Of a stretch of 64,000 bases of DNA, positions 8,899 through 26,401 are shown one piece after another. The DNA is from Spiroplasma chrysopicola DF-1 (lineage in GTDB: Bacteria; Bacillota_I; Bacilli_A; Mycoplasmatales; Mycoplasmataceae), in assembly GCF_000400935.1 (NCBI RefSeq), contig NC_021280.1:620001-684000 (forward strand), written 5' to 3'. The position numbers and the translations under genes were made by a program. Position 1 is the first letter of the stretch. Every line of letters starts with the position of its first letter. The notes under the pieces were generated by a model. It saw nothing but the letters and a program-made list of their open reading frames with translations. It had not been told where the DNA came from and ran no database searches.

Positions 8899-9837
8899 TT
8901 AGTTTTCTCTTAAATAATCACTTTCTTTTAAATCCTCAATAATTTTTTGGCTAACTGCATCAAAATTAGAATAGGAAAATTGATATCAGTTAACATCACT
9001 TAATTGATGCTTAAATCATGTAATTTGTTTTTTGGCGTAAATTTTATTGGCTTTAATCATTGCCATGATTGCGTCCTGCTCGCTAATATCTTCTTTTAAA
9101 AAACTAACAATTTCTCGACAACCTATAATATGCATGCTTTGATATTCTAATGATTGATGACATTGTTGATAAGCTTGGGCTACTTCTGCAAATAATCCTC
9201 GCGCGGTTAAAGCTAATACACGTTCGGCAATTCGAGTATGCAATTCATCTTTATCTGGTAACAATCCAATAATATAAGGTTTAATATATCAAATATTTTG
9301 ATCATGGTCATTTACTGATTTTGGGATTTGATTTTGGTCATAATATTCTAAAGCTCGCAGAATTCGTTTACGATTATTGTAATGGACTTTTTTACTTTCT
9401 TCTTTATCAACGACTGCTAACATTTCTCACAATGCTTGATTAGAATAATGCTCATATTTTGTTAAATTAGCTAAGTTACGACCTTGAGAAGAAAATTGAT
9501 AATTTTTTAAAAGAGCATTAATATATAAACCACTTCCACCAACAACAATTGGCAGTTTATTACGGGCAACTATTTCATTAATTGTTGCTCGCCCGGCTTT
9601 TTGAAAATCACTAATTGAATAATTAGCTGTTAAATCTAAAAAGGAAAGAAAATGATGTTTAACCCCTTGCTGCTCTTCAAGAGTAATTTTATTAGTTGCA
9701 ATATCTAACCCATTAAACATTTGAGTGGCATCCGCATTCAAACATTCTCCATTAAAAGTTTGCGCTAATTTAATTGATAAATCAGTTTTACCACTAGCGG
9801 TTGGACCAATAATTAAAATTACTTTAACTTCTTTCAT
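8899..9837 (-). CDS. miaA: tRNA dimethylallyltransferase MiaA
   Basis: A 312-residue protein. The P-loop is GPTASGKTD at residues 10-18, followed by NADATQMFNGLDIATNK and the GGSGLYINALL motif. It transfers a dimethylallyl group to A37 of tRNAs reading UNN codons. Three stretches are joined through TGA Trp codons. RBS AAAGGAG. A structured RNA with a terminator hairpin lies 60 bp upstream on the same strand, so attenuation of miaA is possible. Confidence 0.93.
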
Positions 9838-9897
9838 TTTCGTTAAACTCCTTTACTATAACTATAACTTTTTTTAAAAAAATTACTAGACAATTGA

Positions 9898-10062
9898 AAA
9901 AGACTAAGTAAAACTTAGTCTTTTATTTTATCATTAAAATAACCCTGAACCGCTTTAAGTGCTTGGGTGTAGAGTTATTGATTTATATAGCGGTTAATAA
10001 CCCCAAACACACCTTAACGTTATAACAAACGTAGAAAACTGTCCTTACGGACAATTACATTT
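9898..10062 (-). ncRNA. candidate structured RNA (possible pseudoknot riboswitch or sRNA) ending in an intrinsic terminator
   Basis: No ORF fits this stretch. Read on the minus strand it folds into: GTCC-GTAA-GGAC (GNRA loop); ACGTT/AACGT; a 9-bp helix GTGTTTGGG with CCCAAGCAC; inside it a hairpin GTTATT/AATAAC. The loop of that hairpin contains AACCGCT, exactly complementary to AGCGGTT just downstream of the 9-bp helix, giving a possible 7-bp pseudoknot. The 3' end is the terminator GACTAAGT/ACTTAGTC followed by T5. A -10 like TTAAAAT precedes it. I do not recognise an Rfam family. It could be an independent RNA or a leader of miaA. Confidence 0.6.
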
Positions 10063-10089
10063 TAACATATTTTTTGATAATTAATTATA

Positions 10090-10289
10090 TTAGAAAAATA
10101 ATTCTTTTGGTAAGACAATTTTACCAATAATATAATTATGTAAGTTCCCATAAGAATCAGCAATTACTAATTTAATCCCTAATTCTTCATCTAAAGGTAA
10201 GATTGGTAAATTTTCAAAAACATTATCGTTACTGCTAATAACCGGTTTACCTTGAACAAAATGTTTTGTTCATTTTTTTGGATCTAATA
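10090..10289 (-). pseudogene. C-terminal fragment of an unknown protein, cut by IS3 debris
   Basis: An open frame of about 66 codons with no start, ending in a TAA at 10090. The translation has normal protein character (ends IIGKIVLPKELFF, and uses TGA as Trp once). It runs directly into IS3 transposase sequence at about 10290, so insertion or recombination removed its 5' part. No family was recognised. Confidence 0.5.
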
Positions 10290-10601
10290 CCATTAAATAA
10301 AATTCAAGTATTCCATACAGATCGAGGTAATGAGTTTAAAAATAATTTAATTGAAAAATTAATTTCAACTTTTAATATTACAAGATCTTTAAGTAAAAAA
10401 GGCTGTCCTTATGATAATGCTATTTCTGAATCAACTTATAAAATTTTAAAAACAGAATTAATTAAAAACAGAAAATTTAAAAATGTTGAGTAATTTAAAT
10501 TAGAATTATTTGACTATGTTAATTGATATAATAATGTGCGAATTCACAGCAAATTAAATTATTTAACACCAATTGAATATAAAAATCGTTACTCTATATA
10601 A
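10290..10601 (+). pseudogene. IS3-family (IS150-type) transposase, C-terminal fragment
   Basis: The translation contains the second half of the rve integrase core: FHTDRGNEF, then GCPYDNAISEST with the catalytic Glu region, and the terminal YNNVRIHSKLNYLTPIEY. An in-frame TAA at 10491 interrupts it, and the N-terminal half is absent. It is not functional. Confidence 0.8.
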
Positions 10602-25998: not shown

Positions 25999-26401
25999 AT
26001 TTATTTCAAATTGGTGAAACTTCATGTACTTTCATACCAGATGCTTTTATGATCTTATTAGTTTTAATATTAGTAGGTTTTTGAAATTCCCTTTTATTTT
26101 CACTTTGTACTTTTCCCTCAATAGCCGCTTTTCAATCATTTAAAGTGCCACGACGAGCTTTAGCATTTTTTCAATGCATTGCTAAACAATTATTAACTTC
26201 TAATTTACCCCCCTTATCTAGTGGTACTAATAAATCAATTACTCAACCAAATTCACTTTCTTGATTTAACTCGCCAATTTTGATAAAAGCCCCAGCAATA
26301 TCACGACGAAACAATAAATTATTTCTTCCCCCACCTTGCTGGGTATTGTCTCAAATCATTCTAATTTCTGGTTCTGATAATTTTTTACTAAAATTTGTCA
26401 T
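25994..26401 (-). CDS. HNH-nuclease-like protein with degenerate motif
   Basis: 135 residues. The segment GWVIDLLVPLDKGGKLEVNN...MHWKNAKARR follows the layout of an HNH domain (D-H-I-x-P-x-x-K-G-G ... N-x-x-x-L-H-x-x-x-N-x-x-K), but the first His is Leu, so catalysis is doubtful. The N-terminus (QQGGGRNNLFRRD) also fits the strand before the HNH loop. It may be a DNA-binding derivative. Family call by eye; it is monocistronic with its own terminator. Confidence 0.55.

What the first reader, a model, noticed from the sequence alone, without database searches (positions are those of the whole stretch)
9898..10062. Unknown structured RNA with possible pseudoknot upstream of miaA
Five helices can be drawn, including a 9-bp stem, a nested 6-bp stem whose loop pairs (7 bp, AACCGCT with AGCGGTT) to sequence beyond the outer stem, and a GNRA hairpin, followed by a Rho-independent terminator 60 bp before miaA. 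There is no ORF. This is the layout of a riboswitch or an independent small RNA, and I recognise no known class.
Basis: seen in the sequence. Interest (0 to 1): 0.7.

Follow-up and report, generated by a model that had tools for sequence, protein, structure and literature searches.

The report
Pseudoknotted leader RNA of Spiroplasma miaA
Just in front of miaA, the gene for a tRNA-modifying enzyme, Spiroplasma bacteria carry a conserved and intricately knotted RNA that matches no known family and most likely decides whether the gene is transcribed, like an undiscovered riboswitch.

Summary
On the minus strand there is a 122-157 nt RNA that starts at its own -10 box. H3, PK and HA all cross one another. 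All three show compensatory changes over 24 distinct sequences (14 pairs changed on both sides, 0 of 500 shuffles as high). The RNA is in all 39 family genomes that have miaA, directly upstream in 38, and in 1 of 21 that lack miaA. It was not found outside the family and has no Rfam match. In every clade except the window's, a run of U follows HA directly and often only 16-36 nt separate it from miaA, so HA looks like an intrinsic terminator through which miaA must be read. Best reading: a cis-acting transcription attenuator, probably an orphan riboswitch, for miaA. The effector is unknown. In one species an insertion sequence split the RNA from miaA, and there the RNA diverges about three times faster, as a cis role predicts.

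The parts
10059..10069 (-). promoter: extended -10 (TATGTTAAAAT, hexamer 10064-10059); start of transcription expected at about 10052-10053, the base of the first hairpin
   Evidence: Read from sequence. In g8, g9 and g5 a TATAAT lies 6 nt before the first hairpin in every locus; in the window's genus TGnTAAAAT is conserved at the same place in most loci
10040..10053 (-). H1, 5'-terminal hairpin, tetraloop GUAA (core pairs 10053-10049 with 10044-10040)
   Evidence: C-G to G-C exchange and GNRA to UUCG loop exchange in relatives
10017..10032 (-). H2 hairpin ACGTT/AACGT (10032-10028 with 10021-10017)
   Evidence: Replaced by AAGAATA/TATTCTT in g8 and g9 and GATTAA/TTAATC in g5
10002..10010 (-). 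H3 5' arm GTGTTTGGG
   Evidence: Pairs with 9967-9959; 5 of 9 pairs with changes on both sides
9959..9967 (-). H3 3' arm CCCAAGCAC
9989..9995 (-). PK 5' arm AACCGCT (in the loop of H3)
   Evidence: Pairs with 9954-9948; changes on both sides in G018 (A-U to C-G), G019 (C-G to U-A) and L087 (A-U to G-C)
9948..9954 (-). PK 3' arm AGCGGTT
9971..9979 (-). HA 5' arm AATAACTCT
   Evidence: Pairs with 9946-9938; 6 of 9 pairs with changes on both sides, 98.6% of cells paired
9938..9946 (-). HA 3' arm AGGGTTATT; followed by a U-run in all clades except the window's genus
9974..10001 (-).
9980..9988 (-). near-invariant unpaired stretch ATATAAATC between PK and HA 5' arms (consensus ATAAAT)
9897..9920 (-). 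intrinsic terminator GACTAAGT-TTT-ACTTAGTC-TTTTT, specific to the window's genus and variable in sequence there
   Evidence: Read from sequence; homologous hairpins of other sequence; the scan reports it in the + direction only, because its A and U runs also pair
8899..9837 (-). miaA, tRNA dimethylallyltransferase, the gene served
   Evidence: Pfam IPPT; synteny

Best explanation
This is the structured 5' leader of the miaA transcript. It acts in cis as a transcription attenuator, most likely an orphan riboswitch. Transcription starts at the base of hairpin H1. H1 and H2 form, then H3 closes a large loop that holds the PK 5' arm, the ATAAAT stretch and the HA 5' arm. The tail then offers first the PK 3' arm and then the HA 3' arm. 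If H3 and PK form and hold the loop (effector bound, inferred), HA cannot form and polymerase reads on into miaA. If not, HA pairs and, with the U-run behind it, ends transcription. PK and HA share no bases; that they exclude each other is inferred from loop lengths (9 nt would have to span both helices). Shown: position, promoter motif, the three crossing helices, the terminator-like HA plus U-run in five genera (g4, g5, g6, g8, g9), linkage to miaA. Inferred: the switch, its direction, the effector (DMAPP, an i6A-related compound, tRNA or MiaA itself are candidates). In the window's genus the U-run behind HA was lost and a separate terminator took its place.
For: Covariation: 14 of 25 pairs of H3+PK+HA have changes on both sides, 66 cells against 20.5 shuffled, 0 of 500; slid controls give 0-4 pairs. 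Linkage: RNA in 39 of 39 family genomes with miaA, directly upstream in 38; in 1 of 21 family genomes without miaA (the G052 hit is weak and lies in a coding region). Terminator: 6-8 U in the 8 nt after HA in g4, g5, g6, g8, g9 against 3.1 on average in g1. No room for a second promoter: 16-36 nt between HA and miaA in many g8 genomes. Relaxed constraint when uncoupled: in G011 an IS split RNA and miaA, and the RNA differs by 0.085 from its relatives against 0.029 at matched MiaA divergence, ranges not overlapping. No Rfam family.
Against: No expression or ligand evidence. HA has a 22-26 nt loop, unusual for an intrinsic terminator. In the window's genus the U-run behind HA is missing and a second, ordinary terminator follows. 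G019 keeps an intact leader after losing miaA. In g1 the RNA is more conserved (4% differences) than MiaA (36%), which is more than most riboswitch leaders need.
Confidence: 0.6

Rival explanations
1. An independent small RNA (own promoter, own terminator) that works in trans and only happens to precede miaA, or a leader whose terminated product has gained a trans role in the window's genus.
For: Own -10 box and terminator; extreme conservation in g1 including stems; G019 keeps it without miaA; a copy on a Spiroplasma-like contig precedes another gene; in L004, L005, L008 and L011 a promoter-like TTGAAA-15/16-TAAAAT precedes miaA (p about 0.1).
Against: Synteny with miaA kept over five genera; no space for another miaA promoter in many g8 genomes; faster change in the uncoupled G011 copy; pseudoknot pair broken in both uncoupled g1-type copies.
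Confidence: 0.22
2. The same attenuator, but the effector is a macromolecule: MiaA binding its own leader, or a tRNA.
For: MiaA is an RNA-binding enzyme (own knowledge); only miaA is controlled, a single locus per genome, as in autoregulation.
Against: No T-box sequence in the window and no anticodon-like loop seen; a protein site would not need three crossing helices.
Confidence: 0.25
3. A structured 5' untranslated region that merely stabilises the transcript or sets a fixed read-through level, without sensing anything.
For: 5'-terminal tetraloop hairpin; no ligand known.
Against: Near-invariant unpaired ATAAAT and three crossing, covarying helices are more than a stabiliser needs.
Confidence: 0.15

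Closest known systems
H-type pseudoknot riboswitches that control intrinsic termination (fluoride/crcB, ZTP/pfl, preQ1-I)
   Same: Compact pseudoknot in the leader, conserved A-rich unpaired stretch, terminator directly behind, single gene downstream
   Different: No sequence or covariance match; three mutually crossing helices; the terminator helix itself has its 5' arm in the aptamer-like loop; target gene miaA
T-box leaders
   Same: Leader attenuator of a translation-related gene in Bacillota-type bacteria
   Different: No T-box sequence, no specifier stem found, no Rfam match
6S RNA
   Same: Size range, independent-looking promoter and terminator
   Different: No match in any of 60 family genomes; no long imperfect duplex; linked to miaA

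Membership tests
Any Rfam 15 family | score at or above the gathering threshold | tested here: not met
   Window: only a tRNA elsewhere; best sub-threshold hit istR 18.1 of 45 bits; divergent homologs: no credible hit on the element
6S RNA (RF00013) | covariance match | tested here: not met
   0 of 60 family genomes at E<=0.1; controls ring
RNase P / SRP RNA | being the genome's only copy of that RNA | tested here: not met
   Both found elsewhere in the genome
T-box | AGGGUGGNACCGCG sequence | tested here: not met
   0 matches with up to 3 mismatches in the window
Riboswitch (functional class) | conserved leader position before one gene or pathway | tested here: met
   38 of 39 family genomes with miaA
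Riboswitch (functional class) | structured aptamer-like domain with covariation | tested here: met
Riboswitch (functional class) | expression platform (terminator or RBS switch) | tested here: inconclusive
   HA plus U-run is terminator-like; switching not shown
Riboswitch (functional class) | direct ligand binding that changes expression | not testable with these tools
   needs in-line probing and termination assays

The most novel reading that the evidence does not exclude
A new riboswitch class, confined to Spiroplasma, that senses DMAPP or the state of i6A37 modification and controls miaA through a fold in which three helices (aptamer stem, pseudoknot and terminator) are mutually interleaved (order a b c a' b' c').
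Probability: 0.28. Interest if true: 0.8.

Novelty: new variant of a known kind. Interest (0 to 1): 0.62.

Why it matters
No riboswitch or attenuator for miaA, or for any enzyme of i6A37 tRNA modification, turned up in Rfam or in the open papers searched here; the paper searches matched words in a limited library. A leader kept in every miaA-bearing Spiroplasma, in bacteria that have shed most regulators, makes control of tRNA hypomodification testable. The interleaved helix order is also an uncommon RNA topology with clear covariation.

Tried and rejected
Rfam at gathering and at E<=10 on the window and on divergent homologs: nothing credible. 6S, SRP, RNase P: absent or elsewhere. T-box sequence: absent. 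H4 as antiterminator: supported in g1 only. Helix HC/HB alternative (GGTGT/ACACC plus GGGGTTATT/AATAACTCT): fits g1 without double changes and was not pursued, because H3 and HA covary across genera. Covariance hits outside the family: none in the class sample (395 genomes) or phylum sample (392); G052 (31 bits) lies within a coding region and is taken as false; G224 is a Spiroplasma-like contig in a foreign bin. DNA pattern scan of genome contigs gave only S. poulsonii and S. phoeniceum, although the g8 sequences should also fit the pattern, so that scan is incomplete; viral contigs: none. A promoter for miaA downstream of the terminator: not better than chance in the window. Covariation inside g1 alone is uninformative because the RNA hardly varies.

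Full report
What is there. The finding lies on the minus strand, in the transcription direction of miaA (8899-9837, minus, Pfam IPPT). The host is a Spiroplasma: UGA codes for Trp, and genomes of the same genus that carry the element include S. poulsonii and S. phoeniceum. The genome length of 1,123,322 bp fits S. chrysopicola by my own recollection, not by a test. The minus strand folds better than all 200 shuffles (z -3.7). There is one copy in the genome and no ORF of 70 aa or more across it. In what follows g1 is the window's genus; g4, g5, g6, g8 and g9 are other genera of its family.

Homologs. BLAST finds it in 14 of 14 genomes of the genus at 87-98% identity and nowhere else in the family. 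A covariance model from these (R1) found weak but full-length matches in two more genera of the family. Nearly all of these lie directly before miaA. Reading the DNA upstream of miaA in the remaining family genomes showed the same RNA in every one except G011. A second model (R2) then recovered 39 of 39 miaA-bearing family genomes plus G019 with strong scores, and nothing credible in the rest of the order (320 genomes), the class sample (395) or the phylum sample (392). The family genera without miaA lack the RNA, G019 excepted. MiaA is known to have been lost several times in Mollicutes (PMC4014445).

Structure. H1 swaps a GNRA for a UUCG loop and a C-G for a G-C pair. H2 changes wholesale between clades but always pairs. 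H3 (GTGTTTGGG/CCCAAGCAC in the window, TTGCGTGAG/CTCATGCAT in g8) has five pairs with changes on both sides. HA (AATAACTCT/AGGGTTATT; AGTATTTCC/GGAAATATT; AATGCTTCT/GGGGGCATT; AGCGCTTCC/GGGGGCGTT) has six. PK (AACCGCT/AGCGGTT) is nearly invariant but has three pairs with changes on both sides, each in a single lineage (A-U to C-G in G018, C-G to U-A in G019, A-U to G-C in L087). Counted on 24 distinct concatenated helix segments, 14 of 25 pairs change on both sides and 95.5% of cells pair, against 6.4 pairs and 86.7% in shuffles, 0 of 500 as high; sliding the partners by 1-3 columns gives 0-4 such pairs. The segments were cut by a search that favours pairing, so the percentage paired leans upward; the double changes are less affected. 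H3, PK and HA cross each other (a b c a' b' c').

Promoter and terminator. A TATAAT lies 6 nt before H1 in every g8, g9 and g5 locus; most g1 loci have TGnTAAAAT there. Transcripts should begin at the first base of H1. In g4, g5, g6, g8 and g9 a run of 6-8 U in 8 nt follows HA at once; in g1 it is 3.1 on average and a separate, sequence-variable terminator follows instead. In many g8 genomes only 16-36 nt lie between HA and miaA, which leaves no room for a promoter. miaA is therefore read through the leader, at least there.

Cis or trans. Three cases uncouple RNA and miaA. In G011 an IS has separated them by about 47 kb; the terminator relic is still before miaA. Its RNA differs by 0.085 from its relatives, against at most 0.040 among those relatives at similar MiaA divergence, and a central PK pair has become A-A. 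This is a single case. On a Spiroplasma-like contig binned with G224, the RNA precedes another gene and PK has an A-C mismatch. In G019 miaA has been deleted just after its start codon, yet the leader is intact. The first two favour a cis role; the third is unexplained (recent loss or a trans role). In g1 the RNA is far more conserved (window against relatives 4%) than MiaA (36%).

Mechanism proposed. H3 forms during transcription and presents PK 5', ATAAAT and HA 5' in its loop. The next bases to emerge complete PK. If PK and the loop are held, by an effector, HA cannot form and miaA is transcribed; otherwise HA and the U-run terminate. The ATAAAT stretch between PK and HA arms is the best candidate for effector contacts. 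Steps shown: helices, position, promoter and terminator signals, linkage. Steps inferred: exclusion of PK and HA, direction of the switch, the effector.

Known or new. No Rfam family matches the window element or its divergent relatives; 6S, SRP, RNase P and T-box were tested and excluded. Paper searches for miaA with riboswitch, Spiroplasma with riboswitch, and miaA with Spiroplasma found no description in titles and abstracts listed, within a library that lacks most subscription journals. It works like a pseudoknot transcription-attenuating riboswitch; membership in any known class was tested and not met.

Noticed in passing
L131 (G019:C29), about 1950-2230, minus: Leader RNA fully intact although miaA has been cleanly deleted after RBS-ATG; a tRNA-Gly gene follows.
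   Followed up: partly
L103 and L139 (G011): IS3-like elements split the RNA (now before thyA-folA) from miaA; both sites carry the terminator 3' half.
   Followed up: partly
L015 (G001:C1:651103): Second copy of RNA plus miaA 11 kb from the first; this miaA is broken into two frames and H1 has decayed.
   Followed up: no
window 26000-26401, minus; L136:2226-2810: A 137-194 aa protein without Pfam match occurs only in the genera that carry this RNA and is directly upstream of the RNA in most g8 genomes and in G019; in the window it lies 16 kb away.
   Followed up: partly
window 10266-10493, plus: Fragment of an IS3-type transposase next to the RNA's upstream side, beside what looks like a truncated minus-strand reading frame.
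   Followed up: no
L073-L081, downstream of HA: In g9 and part of g8 the U-run behind HA can pair with an A-rich stretch just before the miaA RBS (GCATTTTTTATTTTTAA/TTAAAAATAAAAAATGC in L073), with a compensatory change in L076; mutually exclusive with HA.
   Followed up: partly
L104 (G224:C22): Contig in a bin of another family carries a Spiroplasma-like protein (57-62% identity to the window's genus) and this RNA: probable binning contamination.
   Followed up: yes
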